Below are positions 56,370 to 63,787 of a stretch of DNA of 64,000 bases, piece after piece (within the stretch, counting starts at the first letter, position 1; every line of letters starts with the position of its first letter). The notes beneath the pieces are model-generated. The model was given only the letters and a program-made list of their open reading frames with translations. It had not been told where the DNA came from and did no database searches. Both the position numbers and the translations under genes were made by a program. This DNA comes from Solirubrobacterales bacterium (GTDB lineage: Bacteria > Actinomycetota > Thermoleophilia > Solirubrobacterales > Solirubrobacteraceae), in the NCBI GenBank assembly GCA_019240115.1, contig JAFAYV010000071.1, positions 1-64,000 of the forward strand, read 5' to 3'.

Positions 56370-57464
56370 GTGCGCTGGGCGCGGCGCGGCGGGGGGCTGA
56401 CCGTCGCCTGGGAGGCGGCCAACCCGGGGCTGTCGGGCGCCGTGGACGGCGCGGTTCGCACGCCGACGTTCACTGTCGCGCCCGGCGTGCTCGTGCACCG
56501 CCTGTGCGCCGGCGAGGTCGACAACGACCTCGGCGACCGAGTCGCGGCCGAGCTCGTGCGCCCGGGGCTGGTCGACGACTTCGAGACGGCGTTCGCGGGC
56601 GTGGTCACGTGCACGGCCGCCGACCCCTGGGACGCATGGGAGGGCTTCTACGCTCGGACGCTCGCCCGCCTCGGCGCGGCTGGCGGGTCGGGGGCGGACG
56701 GCGCGTCGGGGACGATCGCGACGTTTGCGACGATCTACGCCCACGCGCTGTCGCTCGTGCGCGGCGACTCGCTGCTGGACGCCGGCAGCTGCTTCGGCTT
56801 TCACTGCCTGCTCGCGGCCGCCCGGGGGCTGGACGTGCACGGCACCGATGTGTGCGCGGGAACGGTGGCGCTCGCGGGTGCGATGGCGGCGCGCCGCGGC
56901 TGCTCGGATCGGCTGCGGTTCAGCCGCGCGGACGTGCGTCGCGGTCTGCCGGGCATCGCCGACACCGTCTGCGCGCTGCACCTGCTCGAGCACCTCGCCG
57001 GCCACGAGGTCGGCGCCGCGCTGCAGGTCCTGTGCGCGTCGGCCCGGCGCCGGGTCGTCGTCGCCGTCCCCCTCGAGGCCGCCCCCGATCCCGTCTACGG
57101 TCATCGCACCGCGTTCGACGTGGTGGCGCTGCGCGCCCTCGCCCGCTCGGTGAGCGGCTGGCACGCCGACGTGCACGAGCGTCACGGCGGCTGGATCGTG
57201 CTCGACCGCGTGTCCGCGACCGCGACCGCCTCCGCGAGGGCCGGCGCGGCCGGGACGGTCGGTTCAGGCGGGAACGGGCTCGGGATGGCGCGCGAGCCGC
57301 ATGCGCAGGCGCGCGCGCTGGCGGACGACGCTCGCGCTCTGCGCGCCCGGGAGCAGGATGCCGTCGCGCTCGCCGACCCCGTCGAGGAAGTCGGTCTCGA
57401 GATCGGCGAGCAGGCGGTAGGGGCGGGTGGCGATGAGCCCCACGAGCTGTCGGCGCAGTCGTGA
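56370..57464 (+). CDS. SAM-dependent methyltransferase, MftM candidate
   Basis: The protein (364 residues as an open frame) has motif I DSLLDAGSCFGFHCLLAAARG, motif II VHGTDVCAGTVALAGAM, ADVRRGLPG and VCALHLLEHLAGHEVGAAL. Its place in the MFT locus suggests MftM, which methylates the mycofactocin oligoglucoside; family membership is from context and pattern. Conserved sequence ends near residue 280 (GGWIVLDRV). The last 67 codons (57264-57464) run antisense over the convergent regulator and are probably not conserved. Confidence 0.72.
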   Translation: MRWARRGGGLTVAWEAANPGLSGAVDGAVRTPTFTVAPGVLVHRLCAGEVDNDLGDRVAAELVRPGLVDDFETAFAGVVTCTAADPWDAWEGFYARTLARLGAAGGSGADGASGTIATFATIYAHALSLVRGDSLLDAGSCFGFHCLLAAARGLDVHGTDVCAGTVALAGAMAARRGCSDRLRFSRADVRRGLPGIADTVCALHLLEHLAGHEVGAALQVLCASARRRVVVAVPLEAAPDPVYGHRTAFDVVALRALARSVSGWHADVHERHGGWIVLDRVSATATASARAGAAGTVGSGGNGLGMAREPHAQARALADDARALRAREQDAVALADPVEEVGLEIGEQAVGAGGDEPHELSAQS

Positions 57465-58469
57465 GACCTCGGCGCGGACGCTCATCAGCTTCGTCGGATC
57501 GTCGAACAGCTCGACCGCGAGCTCGCGCGCGCTCAGCCCGTCGGGGTGCAGCGCCATCAGCACGAGCATCTCGGAGTGGCGCGGCGAGAGGCGGATCGTC
57601 ATTCCGTCGACGGTGACCTTGGCGCGGGGGTCACCGAGCGCTTCGACGTACACCCGCCGGCGGCCCGGGCCGCTCGCGCGACCCTCGACGACGATCCCGG
57701 CGCCGCCCTCGAGAGGATCGGCGACGAGCGCCTCGTCGGAGCCCGACGCAAGCCACATCCCCTCGCCGGCGGACACGAGCGGGCCGGTCAGCCACCCCGG
57801 AGGGCTGCACGCGAGCACGCGGCCGACCCGGTCGACGAGCGCCACGCGCGTCTGACCCCAGCGCGCCGCGCGCTCGTAGAACTCGGCGCGCAGCGTCGCG
57901 TTGCGCTGCTCGAGCTCGCCCCGGAGCACGCTTTCGACCGCGTCGGCGGCGGCCGAGACGAGCGCCAGCGAGGTCGGGTGGGCGGCCCGAATGCCGCTCG
58001 AGACGTCGATGACGCCGAGCACCTCGCCGGTCTCGGGGTCATGGATCGGCGCGCCCGAGCAACTCCAGGCGCGGATCTTCAGGTTGTAGTGCTCGGCGGA
58101 GAAGATCTGCACCGGGTGGTCGAGGGCGAGCGCGGTGCCGACGCCGTTGGTGCCCACGATCTCCTCGCGCCAGACGTGACCCGGGCAGAACGAGATCGAT
58201 TCCGAGGCGACGAGCACCTGGGGATGGCCGCTCGCCCAGATGATGCAGCCGTCGGCGTCGGCGATGACGACGATGTGCTGCGAGTCGTAGGCGAAGTCGC
58301 AGAGCAGCTTGTTGACCAGGGGCGCGAAGCGGTGCAGCGGATGGGTCGACCAGGCCTCCTGGGCCTCGCGCTTGTCGTGGAGCAGCGGGGACTCGTGATG
58401 CTCGGGGTCCACACCGGCGGCCTGCGCGCGCTCCCAGGAGGCGGACACGATCGAGCGGACTCCGGACAC
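57264..58469 (-). CDS. GAF-domain transcriptional regulator (AcoR-type sensor, non-Fis output)
   Basis: The 401-residue protein starts with the AcoR signature IVSASWERAQAAGVDPEHHE, then a GAF sensor (VVIADADGCIIWASG, GVGTALALDHPVQIFSAEHYN, GVIDVSSGIRAAHP). It lacks the sigma-54 AAA+ domain. The C-terminal 90 residues have LSPRHSEMLVLMALHPDGLSARELAVELFDD and VSRLRRQLVGLI, a winged-helix-like output. Such regulators accompany alcohol/aldehyde dehydrogenases in actinobacteria and probably activate this MFT locus. GTG 58469 is the only reasonable start. Confidence 0.85.
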   Translation of the reverse strand: MSGVRSIVSASWERAQAAGVDPEHHESPLLHDKREAQEAWSTHPLHRFAPLVNKLLCDFAYDSQHIVVIADADGCIIWASGHPQVLVASESISFCPGHVWREEIVGTNGVGTALALDHPVQIFSAEHYNLKIRAWSCSGAPIHDPETGEVLGVIDVSSGIRAAHPTSLALVSAAADAVESVLRGELEQRNATLRAEFYERAARWGQTRVALVDRVGRVLACSPPGWLTGPLVSAGEGMWLASGSDEALVADPLEGGAGIVVEGRASGPGRRRVYVEALGDPRAKVTVDGMTIRLSPRHSEMLVLMALHPDGLSARELAVELFDDPTKLMSVRAEVSRLRRQLVGLIATRPYRLLADLETDFLDGVGERDGILLPGAQSASVVRQRARLRMRLARHPEPVPA

Positions 58470-58641: not shown

Positions 58642-59685
58642 CTACGCGGAGAGCACCACCTTCAGCGCGTCGTGCTCGTCGGCGGCGCCGAACACGTCGT
58701 AGGCCTGCTCGATCTCCGACAGCGAGAAGTGGTGGGTGCCGAGCTTCTCGGCCTCGATCCGGCCGTCGCGGGCGAGCGCGAGCAGAGTCGGGATCGTCGA
58801 GCCGCTGACCAGGCCGGTGGTGATCGTGATGTTGCGGATCCACAGGTCCTCGAGGTGCAAGGTCGTTGGGGCGCCGTGGACGCCGATGTTGGCCACGGTG
58901 CCGCCCGGACGGACGATCCGCGTGCAGAGGTCGAACGTCTCGGGGACGCCGACCGCCTCGATGGCCACGTCAGCGCCCTCGCCGCCGGTGATCTCCATCA
59001 CCTCGCGCTCGGCATCATCGCCGCCGGCGACCGTGTGGGTGGCCCCGAAGCTCTCGGCGTGGCGCAGCCGCGACGGCGAGAGGTCGATCGCGATGATCCG
59101 ACCCGCGCCGGCGATCGCGGCGGTCATCATCGTGGCCAGGCCCACCGGGCCGGCGCCGACGACGGCGACCGCGTCGCCCGGCTTGACGCGCCCATTCTGC
59201 ACGCCGATCTCGTAGCCCGTGGGCAGGATGTCCGACAGGAACAGGACCTGCTCGTCGGTGACGCCGTCGGGGACCTGGTGCACCGAGGTCTCGGCGAATG
59301 GGACGCGCGCGTAGTCGGCCTGCAGGCCGTCGACGAGGTGGCCGAAGAGCCAGCCGAGCCCGCCACTCCCCTGGCAGTGCGCGGCCATGCCCCGCTTGCA
59401 CGGTCCGCAGCGCCCGCACGAGGTGATCGCGGGCACGAGCACCTTGTCGCCCTCGCTCAGGCCGGTGACCGCAGCCCCCGTCTGCACGACGGTGCCGACC
59501 GCCTCGTGGCCGAGCGTGCGGCCCTCGGTGACGGTGGGAACATCGCCGCGCAGGATGTGCAGGTCGGTGCCGCAGATCGTCGTCGTGTCGATCTTGACGA
59601 TGACGTCGGTGGGGTCCTCGATGCCCGGATCGTCCTTGGAGTCCCACGACCGCTTCCCGGGTCCGCCGAACACGAGCGCTTTCAT
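58642..59685 (-). CDS. Zinc-dependent alcohol dehydrogenase
   Basis: The 347-residue medium-chain dehydrogenase has the catalytic zinc region TTICGTDLHILRGDVP with LGHEAVGTV, structural zinc cysteines CGRCGPCKRGMAAHC, and the Rossmann motif VAVVGAGPVGLATMM. It oxidises or reduces small alcohols/aldehydes with NAD(P). ATG 59685 follows AGGAGGAGAG. It lies upstream of the GAF regulator on the same strand (172-bp gap) and may be its target. Confidence 0.9.
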   Translation of the reverse strand: MKALVFGGPGKRSWDSKDDPGIEDPTDVIVKIDTTTICGTDLHILRGDVPTVTEGRTLGHEAVGTVVQTGAAVTGLSEGDKVLVPAITSCGRCGPCKRGMAAHCQGSGGLGWLFGHLVDGLQADYARVPFAETSVHQVPDGVTDEQVLFLSDILPTGYEIGVQNGRVKPGDAVAVVGAGPVGLATMMTAAIAGAGRIIAIDLSPSRLRHAESFGATHTVAGGDDAEREVMEITGGEGADVAIEAVGVPETFDLCTRIVRPGGTVANIGVHGAPTTLHLEDLWIRNITITTGLVSGSTIPTLLALARDGRIEAEKLGTHHFSLSEIEQAYDVFGAADEHDALKVVLSA

Positions 59686-59744
59686 CTCTCTCCTCCTGGT
59701 GAGCCGTTGCCCCGACGCTATTGGTTCGTCCTCCCGCGCTCCTG

Positions 59745-59814
59745 TCTCAATGCGCGACAGGTCGTGTATCAGACAGTGAGGCCGGGGCACAGACCGGAAA
59801 GTTGCGCATTGTCC
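59745..59814. promoter_or_regulatory. Inverted pair of CAATGCGC boxes upstream of the zinc ADH
   Basis: TCTCAATGCGCGAC (59745-59758) and GTTGCGCATTGTCC (59801-59814) are inverted copies of an AATGCGC-centred box, 42 bp apart and 60-130 bp upstream of the ADH start. A CTGTC...GACAG symmetry surrounds the first. They are candidate sites for the nearby GAF regulator. Confidence 0.5.
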
Positions 59815-59931
59815 CGGCTCGATCCCGAATTTCGAGAAGCGGCCTCCATTTCGGGTTCGTACCGCCGGGAAACGGGTAACGGCGTCTCAATTGTCCGTTG
59901 TAAACGGGACAGAAATGGAAGGAAGAGGCAT

Positions 59932-60333
59932 ATGACTGAAGCCGATCGACCGATCGGGGATCTCTTGCGCGAGTTGTCGGAGCAGACGACGACGCTGGTG
60001 CGCCAAGAGCTCCAGCTGGCTCAGGCCGAGATGACCGAGAAGGGCAAGCGGGCCGGCATCGGCGTCGGCATGTTCGGTGGCGCCGCTGTCGTCGGGCTGT
60101 ACGCGCTGGGCGCGCTGATCGCAGCCGCCATCATCCTGCTGGGCACGGCGGTCGCTCCCTGGCTCGCGGCCGTGATCGTCGCCGCGGTCCTCGGGGTGAT
60201 CGCCGGGGTGCTGGCGCTGCGCGGCCGCTCGCAGGTGGCGAAGGCCACCCCGCCGGTACCCGAGCAGGCAACCGAGAGCGTGAAGGAGGATGTGGAATGG
60301 GCCAAGACCCGAGCCAACCAGGCCAGGAGCTAG
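59932..60333 (+). CDS. Phage_holin_3_6 (DUF1469) family membrane protein
   Basis: The 133-residue protein has an amphipathic N-terminus GDLLRELSEQTTTLVRQELQLAQAEMTEKGKRAG and two membrane helices (FGGAAVVGLYALGALIAAAIILL and AAVIVAAVLGVIAGVLAL). This is the chromosomal holin-like family found with DUF3618 and not a phage lysis gene. ATG 59932 follows GGAAGGAAGAGG. It overlaps the next gene by 37 bp and heads a five-gene envelope operon. Confidence 0.9.
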   Translation: MTEADRPIGDLLRELSEQTTTLVRQELQLAQAEMTEKGKRAGIGVGMFGGAAVVGLYALGALIAAAIILLGTAVAPWLAAVIVAAVLGVIAGVLALRGRSQVAKATPPVPEQATESVKEDVEWAKTRANQARS

Positions 60334-60683
60334 GCGGCGACGCGGAGCGCAGCCCCGAGCAGCTACGAGCGGAGATCGAGCAGACGCGCGAGGAGATGGG
60401 CGATACGGTCGCGGCGCTGGCGGAGAAGACCGACGTCAAGGCGCAGGCTCAGCGCGCGGCGCAGAACGCGCGGGCGACCGCAACGGCCAAGGTCAATGAG
60501 ATCAAGGGGTCGGTGCCGTTCAGAAAGGATGATGCGGGCGCCTCGGGGTCGCCGGAGGCCGCGGTGGGGTCGGCGGGGGACGCCGGCAAGCAGCTGGCGG
60601 GTTTGGCACAGCGCAACCGCGTCGGGCTGATGGTGGGCGGCGCCCTCCTCGTCGGCATCCTCATCGGCAGGTCACGGTCATGA
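60297..60683 (+). CDS. DUF3618 domain protein
   Basis: The 128-residue protein has the DUF3618 pattern SPEQLRAEIEQTREEMGDTVAALAEKTDVKAQA, a coiled-coil-like middle (QNARATATAKVNEIKG) and a C-terminal membrane helix (RVGLMVGGALLVGILIGRS). It normally pairs with the holin-like protein upstream, possibly as an envelope or membrane-shaping complex. It overlaps the following gene by 4 bp. Confidence 0.92.
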   Translation: MGQDPSQPGQELGGDAERSPEQLRAEIEQTREEMGDTVAALAEKTDVKAQAQRAAQNARATATAKVNEIKGSVPFRKDDAGASGSPEAAVGSAGDAGKQLAGLAQRNRVGLMVGGALLVGILIGRSRS

Positions 60684-60961
60684 GCCTGGTGTTCAAGCCG
60701 ATCGGAATCATCACCGGCCTGCTCGCGGGGATCATCGGCAAGAAGATCTTCGATCTGGTGTGGGGGTTGATCGACGAGGAGGACGCGCCCGAGCCTCAGT
60801 ACCGCGAGATCGGGCTGGTCAAGCTGGGGTTGGCGCTGGTGATCCAGGGGGCGATCTTTCGCGCGGTGCGCGGGTTGACCGAGCATGGCACCCGGCATGC
60901 GTTCGCCCGGCTGACCGGGGAGTGGCCGGGCGAAGAGAAGCCCGAACCCAAGGAGGATTGA
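60680..60961 (+). CDS. DUF4235 domain protein
   Basis: The 93-residue protein has FKPIGIITGLLAGIIGKKIFDLVWGLIDEEDAPEP and GLVKLGLALVIQGAIFRAVRGLTEHGTRHAFARLTGEWPGE, which is DUF4235. It has two membrane helices. The start overlaps the preceding stop (ATGA), and its own stop overlaps the next ATG. It is of unknown function, linked to the envelope operon. Confidence 0.92.
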   Translation: MSLVFKPIGIITGLLAGIIGKKIFDLVWGLIDEEDAPEPQYREIGLVKLGLALVIQGAIFRAVRGLTEHGTRHAFARLTGEWPGEEKPEPKED

Positions 60962-61305
60962 TGAACGTCACCGATCAGCTGGGCGCGATCGTCGATCGTC
61001 TGCTCGACGACGACTACGTCCAGGACCAACTCGACCGTGGTCTGGCCAACCTGCGCAAGGGGTCGCGCCGCGCCCAGCGCAAGGGCGCCAAGCAGGCCGC
61101 CACCGACCGCCGGGTGCAGGACCAGCTCGGAGCCGGCGTCGCGGCCGTCGCGCGGGCACTGCAAGCGCTGTCCCAACCCCCGGCGCCGCGTCGTCACGCG
61201 CTCCGTAACAGCGTTCTGCTGGTCGGGCTGGGCGGAGCGGCCGGCGGGGCGGCGCTCGCCTACCGGCAGCTGACCTCGAGCGCGAAGCCGACCTCCGATG
61301 GCTGA
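60961..61305 (+). CDS. Small hypothetical membrane-associated protein
   Basis: The 114-residue protein begins NVTDQLGAIVDRLLDDDYVQDQL and has a basic middle (KGSRRAQRKGAKQAA) and a C-terminal hydrophobic segment (NSVLLVGLGGAAGGAALAY). No family is recognised. It is tightly packed in the operon (1-bp overlap upstream, 8 bp downstream with YihY), so it likely acts with the neighbours at the membrane. Confidence 0.78.
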   Translation: MNVTDQLGAIVDRLLDDDYVQDQLDRGLANLRKGSRRAQRKGAKQAATDRRVQDQLGAGVAAVARALQALSQPPAPRRHALRNSVLLVGLGGAAGGAALAYRQLTSSAKPTSDG

Positions 61306-62296
61306 ATCCGACCGGCCGGTGGCCCAGGGCGCCGAGCGGCGCGGGTTGGACCCTGAAGCGGCGCACCGCGATCCCGCCGCGCCCGATCAGCCCACAGATC
61401 TTCCGGGCTCGGCCGTCCCGGGCGTGTTCAAGCGGACGCTGCGTGAGTTCTCAGCCGACCATCTCACCGACCTCGCGGCGGCGTTGACCTACTACGGGGT
61501 GCTGGCGATCTTTCCCATGATCATCGTGATCATCTCGGTGCTGGGCCTGATCGGGCACTCGGCCACCCAGCCGCTGATCACCAACCTCTCAAGCGTCGCG
61601 CCCGGACCGGCCAAGCAGATCCTCACCAGCGCCATCACCAACGTCGCGTCGGGCCGCGGGACCGCCGGGATCCTGTTCATCGCCGGCCTGGCGGGCGCGC
61701 TGTGGTCGGCCTCGGGGTACATCGCCGCGTTCATGCGCGCCTCCAACGTCGTCTGGGACGTCAAGGAGGGGCGCCCGTTCTACAAGACGATCCCGATCCG
61801 CCTGGGCGTGACGCTGGTGACGGTGATCCTCCTGACCGTGAGCGCGCTCGCCGTCATCCTGACCGGCGATCTCGCGAAGAAGGTCGGCAATCTGATCGGG
61901 CTGGGGTCGACGGCGGTGACGGTGTTCGACATCGCCAAGTGGCCGATCATGCTCCTCATCTTCAGCGTCATCCTCGCCATCCTCTACTACGCCGGACCCA
62001 ACGTCCGCCAACCCGGCATCCGCTGGGTCAGCCCCGGCAGCGTGTTGGCGGTCATCGCCTGGATCATCGCCTCGGCGGCGTTCGCGTTCTACGTGGCGAG
62101 CTTCAGCTCCTATAACAAGACCTACGGCGCGCTGGGCGGCGTCATCGCCTTCCTGGTCTGGCTCTGGATCACCAACCTGGTCATCCTCCTCGGCGCCGAA
62201 CTCAACGCCGAACTCGAGCGCGGGCGGCTCATCGCCGCCGGGCACCCCGCCGAGCGCGAACCCTACCTCCCACCCCGCGACCAGCCCCGCACCTAG
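61298..62296 (+). CDS. YihY/BrkB family inner-membrane protein
   Basis: The 332-residue protein has about six membrane helices and the YihY pattern: LAAALTYYGVLAIFPMIIVIISVLG, ALWSASGYIAAFMRASNVVWDVKEGRPF and YNKTYGALGGVIAFLVWLWITNLVILLGAELNAELER. The family is sometimes misnamed ribonuclease BN. Its transport function is unproven. ATG 61298 overlaps the preceding gene by 8 bp. Confidence 0.93.
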   Translation: MAESDRPVAQGAERRGLDPEAAHRDPAAPDQPTDLPGSAVPGVFKRTLREFSADHLTDLAAALTYYGVLAIFPMIIVIISVLGLIGHSATQPLITNLSSVAPGPAKQILTSAITNVASGRGTAGILFIAGLAGALWSASGYIAAFMRASNVVWDVKEGRPFYKTIPIRLGVTLVTVILLTVSALAVILTGDLAKKVGNLIGLGSTAVTVFDIAKWPIMLLIFSVILAILYYAGPNVRQPGIRWVSPGSVLAVIAWIIASAAFAFYVASFSSYNKTYGALGGVIAFLVWLWITNLVILLGAELNAELERGRLIAAGHPAEREPYLPPRDQPRT

Positions 62297-62338: not shown

Positions 62339-63787
62339 GTGACCGACCGCGCGCCATCCCGGCCCAACGCGGCCCGGTCGACCTCGCTCATGCGCGCCGA
62401 CGCGCTGGCCAGCCGAGAACGGATCCTCGAGGCCGCGCTCGTCATCGCCGGCGAGCGCGGGTTCAGCATGGCCGAGATCGCGGATGCGGCGGGGGTGGGT
62501 CGCTCGACCCTGTACCGCCATTTCCCGACCCGGGAAGCGCTGCGGGATGCGTTGTCCCAGCGGGGAGCCAGAGCGGCTGAGCGACTCGCCCCCGACCAGC
62601 GCGTCACGCCGCTGCCCTACCAGGCGCCCGGCCAGCTGGGCCGCGACCAGCCGCTGTCCCTCGAGGTGACGCGGGTCCTGGACGAAGTGCCCCCACACCT
62701 GGTGCCCGACCAGCTGGTCTCCGAGGCCCGGCGCGCCGCCGGCGTCCCGGTGGCTCTGTACGTCGTCGACATCGACGGCTCACACCTGCTGCGGCTCGCC
62801 GGGTCCGACGAGTTCCCCCAGGACATCGCCGCCCCGCCGGCGCTCGGCCCCGAGATCGTCCCCGAGGGACTTCCCGCCTTCTACGAGCGGCTCGACGAGA
62901 TGCTGCCGGGGTGCGTCGTCGAGCCGCTGTGGTTGCGCGGACGCGTCACGGCCTTGCTGCTGTGCATCGGCACTCCCCACAGCCCGCTTGCCGACATCGC
63001 CAAGCAGGGCGCCGCCGCCCTCGAACTCGCCGGCGACTACACCGACTCGATCGAGGAAGCGCGTCGTCGCAAGCCGACCACCCCCGCCGCCGAGATCCAG
63101 CAGAACCTGTTCCCGCCGCGCATCGCCCGCGTCGCCGGCGCGCAGCTCGCCGGTGTCCTGCTGCCGAGCTACGAGGTCGGCGGCGACTGGTTTGACTTCG
63201 TGGAGAACCGCGATGGTGCCTGGCTGGCGATCGCCGACGCGTCGGGCAACGGTCCAACCGCTGCCGGATTGGGCGCCGCTGTGCTCGGCGCCCTGCGGGC
63301 CGCGCGGCGCGCCGGCGGCGAGCTCGAACAGGCGCTGGATCTGATGGATGACACGGTCCGTCGACTCGAGCATCCCGATCTCTTCGTCACCGCCATCGTC
63401 GCTCGCTGGCGCGCGGCCACCGGCTCGCTGCGATGGGTCAACTGCGGGCATCCCTCGCCGCTCGTGCTCGACCCCGACGGCGCGCTCGTCGAGCTCGAGG
63501 AGACGCCGCACCCCGCTCTCGGAACCGGGCCGCGACCCGCGGGCTTCGCCGTGTCCGAGCGGCGCCTGCGGTCCGGCGAGCGGCTCATCCTGATCACCGA
63601 CGGCGTCACCGCCCGCGAGGTTCAGGGCGGCGGACGGTTTGGCGTCGACGGCATCGCAGCCGCCGTGCAGGCCGCCGAGAGCCCGACCGCCGCCGACACC
63701 GCGATGTCCATCCAGAGCGCGATCACCGACAGCTGGACCGAGCCGCTGCAGGACGACGCCACCCTGGTCGTGATGGCCGTCGGTTAG
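62339..63787 (+). CDS. TetR HTH - sensor domain - PP2C (SpoIIE-type) phosphatase fusion
   Basis: The 482-residue protein combines three modules. Residues 22-70 are a TetR helix-turn-helix (ASRERILEAALVIAGERGFSMAEIADAAGVGRSTLYRHFPTREALRD). Residues about 110-235 look like a GAF-type sensor (VALYVVDIDGSHLLRLAG). Residues 240-482 are a PP2C/SpoIIE phosphatase: IQQNLFPPRIARVAGAQLAG, SYEVGGDWFDFVE, ADASGNGPTAA, WVNCGHPSPLVL, LILITDGVTAREV and DDATLVVMAV. GTG 62339 starts it. It could couple direct DNA binding to partner-switch dephosphorylation. Confidence 0.88.
   Translation: MTDRAPSRPNAARSTSLMRADALASRERILEAALVIAGERGFSMAEIADAAGVGRSTLYRHFPTREALRDALSQRGARAAERLAPDQRVTPLPYQAPGQLGRDQPLSLEVTRVLDEVPPHLVPDQLVSEARRAAGVPVALYVVDIDGSHLLRLAGSDEFPQDIAAPPALGPEIVPEGLPAFYERLDEMLPGCVVEPLWLRGRVTALLLCIGTPHSPLADIAKQGAAALELAGDYTDSIEEARRRKPTTPAAEIQQNLFPPRIARVAGAQLAGVLLPSYEVGGDWFDFVENRDGAWLAIADASGNGPTAAGLGAAVLGALRAARRAGGELEQALDLMDDTVRRLEHPDLFVTAIVARWRAATGSLRWVNCGHPSPLVLDPDGALVELEETPHPALGTGPRPAGFAVSERRLRSGERLILITDGVTAREVQGGGRFGVDGIAAAVQAAESPTAADTAMSIQSAITDSWTEPLQDDATLVVMAVG

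What the first reader, a model, noticed from the sequence alone, without database searches (positions are those of the whole stretch)
62339..63787. TetR DNA-binding domain fused to a sensor and a PP2C/SpoIIE phosphatase
One continuous frame joins a canonical TetR HTH, a GAF-like middle and a complete PP2C phosphatase with its Asp/Gly metal motifs. TetR proteins are normally one-component repressors, and SpoIIE-type phosphatases normally act on anti-sigma antagonists. A single polypeptide with both could switch transcription and a partner-switching cascade with one ligand.
Basis: partly seen in the sequence, partly recalled or inferred. Interest (0 to 1): 0.8.

Follow-up and report, generated by a model that had tools for sequence, protein, structure and literature searches.

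The report
DNA-binding stress phosphatase of soil actinobacteria
One protein joins a TetR-type DNA-binding head, a GAF sensor and a stress-signalling phosphatase; the fusion is real, arose once, is conserved across a class of soil bacteria, and sits beside the kind of membrane-stress genes such phosphatases are thought to switch on, so one molecule may act on both a signalling cascade and its target promoter.

Summary
Window 62339-63787 (+) encodes one 482-aa frame: TetR_N helix-turn-helix (29-72), GAF-fold domain (about 110-236) and SpoIIE/RsbU-type PPM phosphatase (about 245-482) with its metal-site aspartates. It is not an assembly join: full-length relatives occur in isolates and complete genomes of several Thermoleophilia families (Conexibacter, Solirubrobacter, Patulibacter, Paraconexibacter). 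A tree puts all 43 fused proteins (one decayed) in one clade; relatives outside it are GAF-PPM phosphatases without TetR. The neighbouring genes are the best clue to function: a Holin-X/DUF3618/DUF4235/BrkB (or DUF2382, MscS-helix, aquaporin) cassette, usually divergent, co-directional in the window. The same cassette is induced by the osmotic-stress sigma factor σH in Actinoplanes (published). The window's cassette promoter has a σH-like site between two GGGACA boxes; GGGACA is about 24-fold enriched at these promoters in the close orthologue group, replicates in four held-out genomes, and is absent from cassette promoters of six genomes without the fusion. Best model: an RsbU-type activator of a SigB/H-like sigma factor that also binds its target cassette's promoter. 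DNA binding and dephosphorylation are untested. I found no description of a TetR-PPM protein in the papers searched.

The parts
62339..63787 (+). Fused gene: TetR_N - linker - GAF - PPM (SpoIIE/RsbU type) phosphatase, 482 aa, GTG start; alternative in-frame ATG at 62390
62393..62575 (+). TetR-type helix-turn-helix module (residues 19-79; Pfam match 29-72)
   Evidence: Pfam PF00440 E 1.7e-12; R55, T57, R60, F62 kept in 34-36 of 37 relatives; PDB sequence matches to TetR regulators 2qwt, 2q24
62654..63046 (+). GAF-fold sensor domain (about residues 106-236), the most conserved part among close orthologues (77-84% identity)
   Evidence: fold of the part alone matches GAF domains; Pfam GAF in 5 of 37 relatives; per-domain identity
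63047..63784 (+). Linker and PPM phosphatase domain (about residues 237-482) with D283, D286, D300, D421, D472, D473
   Evidence: Pfam PF07228 E 3.4e-37; closest folds Rv1364c RsbU domain 3ke6 Z 26.6, SiaA 6k4e Z 24.7, SpoIIE 5ucg Z 23.9
59932..60333 (+). Holin-X-like (Phage_holin_3_6 kind) small membrane protein gene, first gene of the linked cassette
   Evidence: homologue L053:7330-7782 is PF07332 E 4e-39; homology of the window gene by clustering
60297..60683 (+). DUF3618 gene of the cassette
   Evidence: PF12277 E 3.3e-15
60680..60961 (+). DUF4235 gene of the cassette
   Evidence: PF14019 E 7.3e-16
61298..62296 (+). BrkB/YihY-family membrane protein gene of the cassette, 42 bp before the fused gene
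   Evidence: PF03631 E 2.9e-66
59855..59878 (+). sigma-H/sigma-B-like promoter match GTTC-N15-GGGTA before the cassette
   Evidence: published sigma-H consensus GTTT / 14.6 nt / GGGTA (PMC11205660)
59810..59815 (-). GGGACA box (TGTCCC on +), candidate operator
59906..59911 (+). GGGACA box, candidate operator

Best explanation
The protein is a GAF-sensing RsbU/SpoIIE-type phosphatase that has gained a TetR DNA-binding head. A stress signal read by the GAF domain would, through a dimeric helical linker of the kind known from RsbU, switch on the PPM domain, which dephosphorylates an RsbV-like STAS anti-anti-sigma factor and so frees a SigB/SigH-like sigma factor. The TetR head holds the same protein at the promoter of the neighbouring envelope/osmotic-stress cassette (in the orthologue group probably through GGGACA boxes) and adds direct control there, most simply repression relieved by the same signal. 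The result would be coherent feed-forward control (sigma released and promoter freed by one event), with feedback because the gene is linked to the cassette. Shown here: architecture, conservation of both modules, single origin, linkage to the cassette, motif and sigma-promoter enrichment, presence of the sigma/STAS/kinase set in the genome. Shown by others: sigma-H induces the same kind of cassette in Actinoplanes. Inferred: DNA binding, the GGGACA target, phosphatase activity, its STAS substrate, the signal, and the sign of regulation.
For: Architecture confirmed. 34 of 37 relatives have TetR_N, 36 have SpoIIE; HTH and metal residues conserved. 43 fused proteins form one clade, support 95/86. 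Holin-X/DUF3618/DUF4235/BrkB/DUF2382/MscS-helix/aquaporin genes flank the fused gene in about two thirds of 33 loci, usually divergently. The Actinoplanes cassette ACSP50_3380-3383 (DUF4235, DUF3618, Holin-X, BrkB) is upregulated by sigma-H (PMC11205660), a homologue of the S. coelicolor sigma-H that is held by partner switching. Sigma-H-like promoter on the cassette strand in 5 of 24 loci against 0.24 expected, the window included. GGGACA 6.03/kb upstream of the fusion against 0.26 in other intergenic DNA and 0.15 in coding DNA (Fisher p 7.5e-12); 4 of 4 held-out orthologue promoters positive, p 3.7e-7; none in cassette promoters of six genomes without the fusion. Own genome has a SigBFG sigma (269 bits, cut-off 234), a STAS protein with the DSTG phospho-site motif and RsbW-like HATPases; of its strong SpoIIE-type matches, two intact ones are TetR-fused and one is REC-fused.
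Against: No STAS, anti-sigma or SigB-type sigma gene is directly linked to the fused gene in the window; the sigma-70 gene near five loci is of the RpoD-like kind with region 1.2. GGGACA is absent from the promoters of the more diverged fused clades, its copies are direct or scattered rather than the palindrome usual for TetR, and close GGGACA pairs also occur elsewhere in the genome beside integrase-like genes, so another protein may bind it. The usual TetR dimerisation domain is missing. The strict sigma-H-like promoter is found in only 5 of 24 loci. No wet-lab data.
Confidence: 0.5

Rival explanations
1. Only the TetR head is an output: the protein is a one-component repressor of the cassette, and the PPM domain serves as a dimerisation or partner-binding part (as the PPM-like domain of RssB serves as an adaptor), with no relevant catalysis.
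For: RssB PPM domains are among the closest folds; the gene sits beside its likely target genes as TetR regulators do.
Against: All metal-site aspartates are kept in 35-37 of 37 relatives, which an adaptor need not keep; TetR-less relatives with the same GAF-PPM exist.
Confidence: 0.15
2. Only the phosphatase is an output: the TetR head is a dimerisation or anchoring module without a specific operator, and the cassette is linked because the phosphatase belongs to the same sigma regulon.
For: The TetR part diverges faster than the GAF part (59-66% against 77-84% identity among close orthologues); TetR-less relatives survive in the same genus and family (L035-L038).
Against: Recognition-helix residues R55, T57, R60, F62 are conserved over the clade, and a specific motif marks the promoters of the orthologue group.
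Confidence: 0.15
3. Both modules work, but the DNA-binding head acts on other genes, and GGGACA belongs to another regulator of the cassette.
For: GGGACA pairs occur elsewhere in the genome; TetR operators are usually palindromic, these are not.
Against: GGGACA is absent from cassette promoters of genomes that lack the fusion and follows the cassette promoter when gene order changes (window, L217).
Confidence: 0.19
4. Artefact: a frameshift or assembly join of a TetR gene and a phosphatase gene.
For: The genome is a 99-contig draft; one relative (L063/L030) is split in frame and one own copy (C19) is decayed.
Against: Same full-length frame in dozens of independent genomes including isolates and complete chromosomes.
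Confidence: 0.01

Closest known systems
RsbU / RsbP / RsbZ-type PPM phosphatases that start the general stress response (B. subtilis, C. difficile)
   Same: C-terminal PPM domain of the SpoIIE family behind an N-terminal sensor (GAF in RsbZ) and a helical linker (PMC12143880)
   Different: None described in the passages read carries a DNA-binding domain; N-terminal parts listed are PAS, REC, GAF, HAMP and the RsbU domain
Rv1364c of Mycobacterium tuberculosis (3ke6)
   Same: Closest solved phosphatase by sequence and fold (E 7e-12; Z 26.6); a PPM fused to other regulatory domains
   Different: Fused to PAS, anti-sigma and anti-anti-sigma domains, not to a DNA-binding domain
Stand-alone actinobacterial GAF-PPM proteins (about 400 aa, L128-L150)
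   Same: Same GAF and PPM order, outgroup of the fused clade
   Different: 0 of 21 have TetR_N
TetR/AcrR one-component regulators
   Same: N-terminal TetR_N HTH; gene often divergent from likely targets
   Different: No TetR C-terminal ligand/dimer domain in the window protein; a GAF-PPM takes its place
Sigma-H-induced cassette of Actinoplanes sp. SE50/110 (ACSP50_3380-3383)
   Same: Same set of genes as beside the fused gene (DUF4235, DUF3618, Holin-X, BrkB)
   Different: No TetR-PPM gene is reported with it in the passages read

Membership tests
SpoIIE/RsbU-type PPM phosphatases (PF07228) | Significant match to the SpoIIE domain model and PPM fold | tested here: met
   E 3.4e-37, 128.7 bits against cut-off 25; Z 26.6 to 3ke6
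SpoIIE/RsbU-type PPM phosphatases (PF07228) | Metal-binding aspartates | tested here: met
   D283, D286, D300, D421, D472, D473 present and conserved in 35-37 of 37
SpoIIE/RsbU-type PPM phosphatases (PF07228) | Dephosphorylates a STAS anti-anti-sigma factor | not testable with these tools
   A STAS protein with the DSTG motif and a SigBFG sigma exist in the genome but are unlinked
TetR/AcrR family regulators (PF00440) | TetR_N helix-turn-helix | tested here: met
   E 1.7e-12, 47.4 bits against cut-off 24, whole profile 1-47
TetR/AcrR family regulators (PF00440) | Alpha-helical C-terminal ligand/dimerisation domain directly after the HTH | tested here: not met
   After residue 80 the model has a disordered linker and then a GAF fold; it has a TetR DNA-binding domain but is not a standard TetR repressor
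TetR/AcrR family regulators (PF00440) | Sequence-specific DNA binding | not testable with these tools
   Only a candidate motif
GAF domains | GAF fold | tested here: met
   Part folded alone matches solved GAF domains, top VIA Z 10.6, rmsd 3.6, 130 residues; Foldseek best E 1.4e-4
Sigma-B/sigma-H partner-switching gene modules | Linked sigma, anti-sigma kinase and STAS genes | tested here: not met
   None next to the fused gene; such a set lies on another contig, C77

The most novel reading that the evidence does not exclude
A new class of dual-output signalling protein: a DNA-bound partner-switching phosphatase that frees a stress sigma factor and at the same time acts by its own TetR head on the promoter that this sigma factor will use, so that sigma release and promoter access are set by one conformational change. 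To my knowledge it would be the first PPM phosphatase shown to be a promoter-bound transcription factor.
Probability: 0.4. Interest if true: 0.8.

Novelty: new variant of a known kind. Interest (0 to 1): 0.62.

Why it matters
Partner-switching phosphatases are known to act on sigma-factor control through protein partners. A phosphatase that can also sit on DNA would link the two levels of bacterial transcription control (sigma supply and promoter access) in one molecule. The architecture is conserved in cultivable genera, comes with a candidate operator and a candidate target cassette, and so can be tested directly. It also gives a handle on stress control in Thermoleophilia, a group of soil bacteria for which the paper library held nothing on partner switching.

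Tried and rejected
Assembly or frameshift artefact: rejected by intact relatives. Palindromic TetR operator: no shared dyad found in upstream regions; the shared element is the short GGGAC[AG] box, often repeated at 9-12 bp spacing. Genome-wide search for close GGGACA pairs to find a regulon: 21 matches against 1 for the reversed control, but several lie beside integrase-like genes or in coding repeats, so no regulon was inferred. Fold search with the whole model says nothing on the GAF part because the PPM domain fills the list; the part was folded alone for that. Literature: no paper in the held library describes a TetR-SpoIIE/PP2C fusion under the terms tried. The library lacks most subscription papers, and domain databases may list the architecture without comment, so this is weak evidence of novelty. 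I did not test whether independent TetR-PPM fusions exist outside the Actinomycetota; in the phylum sample (396 genomes) the matches at E 1e-30 outside the window's own family had no TetR_N in 21 of 21 scanned.

Full report
What is there. The open frame 62339-63787 on the + strand is real: GTG start, 482 aa, no internal stop. Pfam finds TetR_N at residues 29-72 and SpoIIE at 292-480, both well over their cut-offs. The middle has no Pfam hit in this protein. AlphaFold on 15 full-length relatives gives an HTH, a low-confidence linker (80-105), an alpha/beta domain (110-234) and a PPM domain at high confidence. The PPM domain is closest to the RsbU domain of Rv1364c (VIA Z 26.6), SiaA and SpoIIE. 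The middle, folded alone on 48 relatives (pLDDT 85), matches solved GAF domains, and 5 of 37 relatives score with Pfam GAF.

Is it a fusion or a join? Full-length relatives with all three modules at 64-71% identity were found in many genomes of the genus and family, and more diverged ones at 40-58% in other families. They include isolates and complete genomes: Conexibacter sp. CPCC 206217 and DBS9H8, Solirubrobacter phytolaccae, taibaiensis and deserti, Patulibacter americanus, Paraconexibacter antarcticus. In 34 of 37 relatives scanned TetR_N is found, in 36 SpoIIE; three proteins without the TetR part (L035-L037) were put in on purpose. In a sample of 399 genomes of the class 52 had a match at E 1e-60 or better, most covering the TetR part. 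In 396 genomes of the phylum, the further relatives were GAF-PPM proteins; 0 of 21 scanned had TetR_N. A maximum-likelihood tree of the GAF-PPM part puts all 43 fused proteins (37 short, 5 long and one decayed) in one clade (support 95/86), with the four TetR-less relatives of the same family branching next to it and the other actinobacterial GAF-PPM proteins further out. The simplest reading is one fusion, early in this class, followed by duplication into several clades. The own genome has three copies: this one, an intact one at C68, and a decayed one at C19. One clade has a longer form with a stretch where the TetR C-terminal domain would lie and a PAS domain between HTH and GAF (L029, L064, L068, L070).

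Are both ends alive? The metal-site aspartates D283, D286, D300, D421, D472 and D473 are kept in 35-37 of 37 relatives and the HTH residues R55, T57, R60 and F62 in 34-36. Among close orthologues the GAF part is the most conserved (77-84%), then PPM (65-68%) and TetR (59-66%). This argues that both ends are under selection, but activity has not been measured.

Surroundings. In the window the gene is the last of a co-directional set: Holin-X-like (59932-60333), DUF3618 (60297-60683), DUF4235 (60680-60961), a small gene, BrkB (61298-62296), then 42 bp and the fused gene. In about two thirds of 33 relatives' loci genes of the same kind, or DUF2382/PRC-barrel, MscS-type helix and aquaporin genes, lie beside the fused gene, mostly in divergent orientation. 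So gene order and direction differ but the partners stay. In Actinoplanes the run DUF4235-DUF3618-Holin-X-BrkB (ACSP50_3380-3383) is among the genes strongly raised by sigma-H expression; that sigma-H is a homologue of the S. coelicolor osmotic-stress sigma held by partner switching, and its promoter is GTTT, 14.6 nt, GGGTA (PMC11205660). Strict matches to GTT[TCG]-N12-18-GGGTA on the cassette strand occur in 5 of 24 promoter regions against 0.24 expected, none on the other strand; one is in the window at 59855-59878.

A candidate operator. K-mer counts in upstream regions pointed to GGGACA. In nine close orthologues it occurs at 6.03 per kb in the 350 bp upstream of the fused gene, 0.26 in other intergenic DNA and 0.15 in coding DNA (Fisher p 7.5e-12). 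In the window, where the fused gene follows BrkB after 42 bp, two boxes flank the sigma-H-like promoter of the cassette (59810 and 59906); in L217 two boxes lie between the fused gene and the cassette gene that follows it. Four orthologues fetched later, not used for finding the motif, all have it in the divergent region (7 sites in 1.4 kb against 5 in 27.8 kb, p 3.7e-7). Nine BrkB-cassette promoter regions at eight loci without a fused orthologue beside them had none; six of these loci are from genomes in which one search found no fusion (G007, G012, G044, G046, G049, G050), two (L211, L214) are from genomes that have a fused gene elsewhere. An unlinked cassette in G016, which has the fusion elsewhere, has one site. 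Against a simple story: the boxes are not palindromic as TetR operators usually are, more diverged fused clades lack them, and GGGACA pairs also occur elsewhere in the genome, some beside integrase-like genes. I treat the motif as a candidate only.

Partners in the genome. Contig C77 holds a SigB/F/G-family sigma factor (269 bits, cut-off 234), an RsbW/SpoIIAB-like HATPase and a STAS protein with the DSTG motif of RsbV-like antagonists; C51 holds a stressosome-like RsbR/S/T/X set (the RsbR/S/T/X labels are mine, from gene order and weak family matches). The genome has few SpoIIE-type phosphatases: REC-PPM (C5), this one, its C68 and C19 paralogues, and two weaker matches (RsbX-like and PstP-like). 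So the TetR-fused proteins are main candidates for the activator of this sigma pathway. Linkage does not show it, since none of these genes lies beside the fused gene.

Mechanism. RsbU-type phosphatases are switched by dimeric helical linkers that carry signals from the N-terminal domain to the PPM switch helices (PMC12143880). With a GAF sensor in the middle, one movement could reach both ends: phosphatase on, HTH pairing changed. The most likely arrangement is coherent: the same signal frees the sigma factor and clears (or arms) the cassette promoter. The sign is a guess; repression is the TetR default (general knowledge). Rivals are an HTH-only output, a phosphatase-only output, and a head that acts on other genes, listed with what would refute each.

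Verdict. It is a new variant of known parts: PPM phosphatases have many N-terminal partners in the literature read here, none of them a DNA-binding domain, but novelty rests on a limited library.

Noticed in passing
L011:8473-9651 (-), G000 contig C19: Third own paralogue has lost the GAF core and has a frame change in TetR helix 1 with no start codon upstream in frame; probably decayed, or an assembly error.
   Followed up: partly
L029, L064, L068, L070; L063/L030: Longer form: TetR_N, a stretch in the place of the TetR C-terminal domain and a PAS domain, then GAF and PPM (about 700-740 aa), one clade; in L063/L030 the same protein is split over two frames.
   Followed up: partly
L082:7950-11899: In Paraconexibacter antarcticus a second related phosphatase gene (697 aa) follows the fused gene directly.
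   Followed up: no
G000 C16:30605, C64:27723, C64:28963 (L234, L236): Close direct repeats of GGGACA (such as GGGACATATTGGGGACA) beside or inside integrase-like genes; 21 GGGACA pairs in the genome against 1 for the reversed pattern.
   Followed up: partly
window 57264-58469 (-) and 58642-59790 (-): GAF-domain protein (401 aa, rest without Pfam hit) next to a zinc-type alcohol dehydrogenase gene, divergent from the stress cassette; the two GGGACA boxes lie in the intergenic region between dehydrogenase and cassette.
   Followed up: no
L219:2099-5479 (G000 C51): Stressosome-like set: two STAS proteins, an RsbT-like kinase, an RsbX-like phosphatase, and a GAF-like protein.
   Followed up: partly
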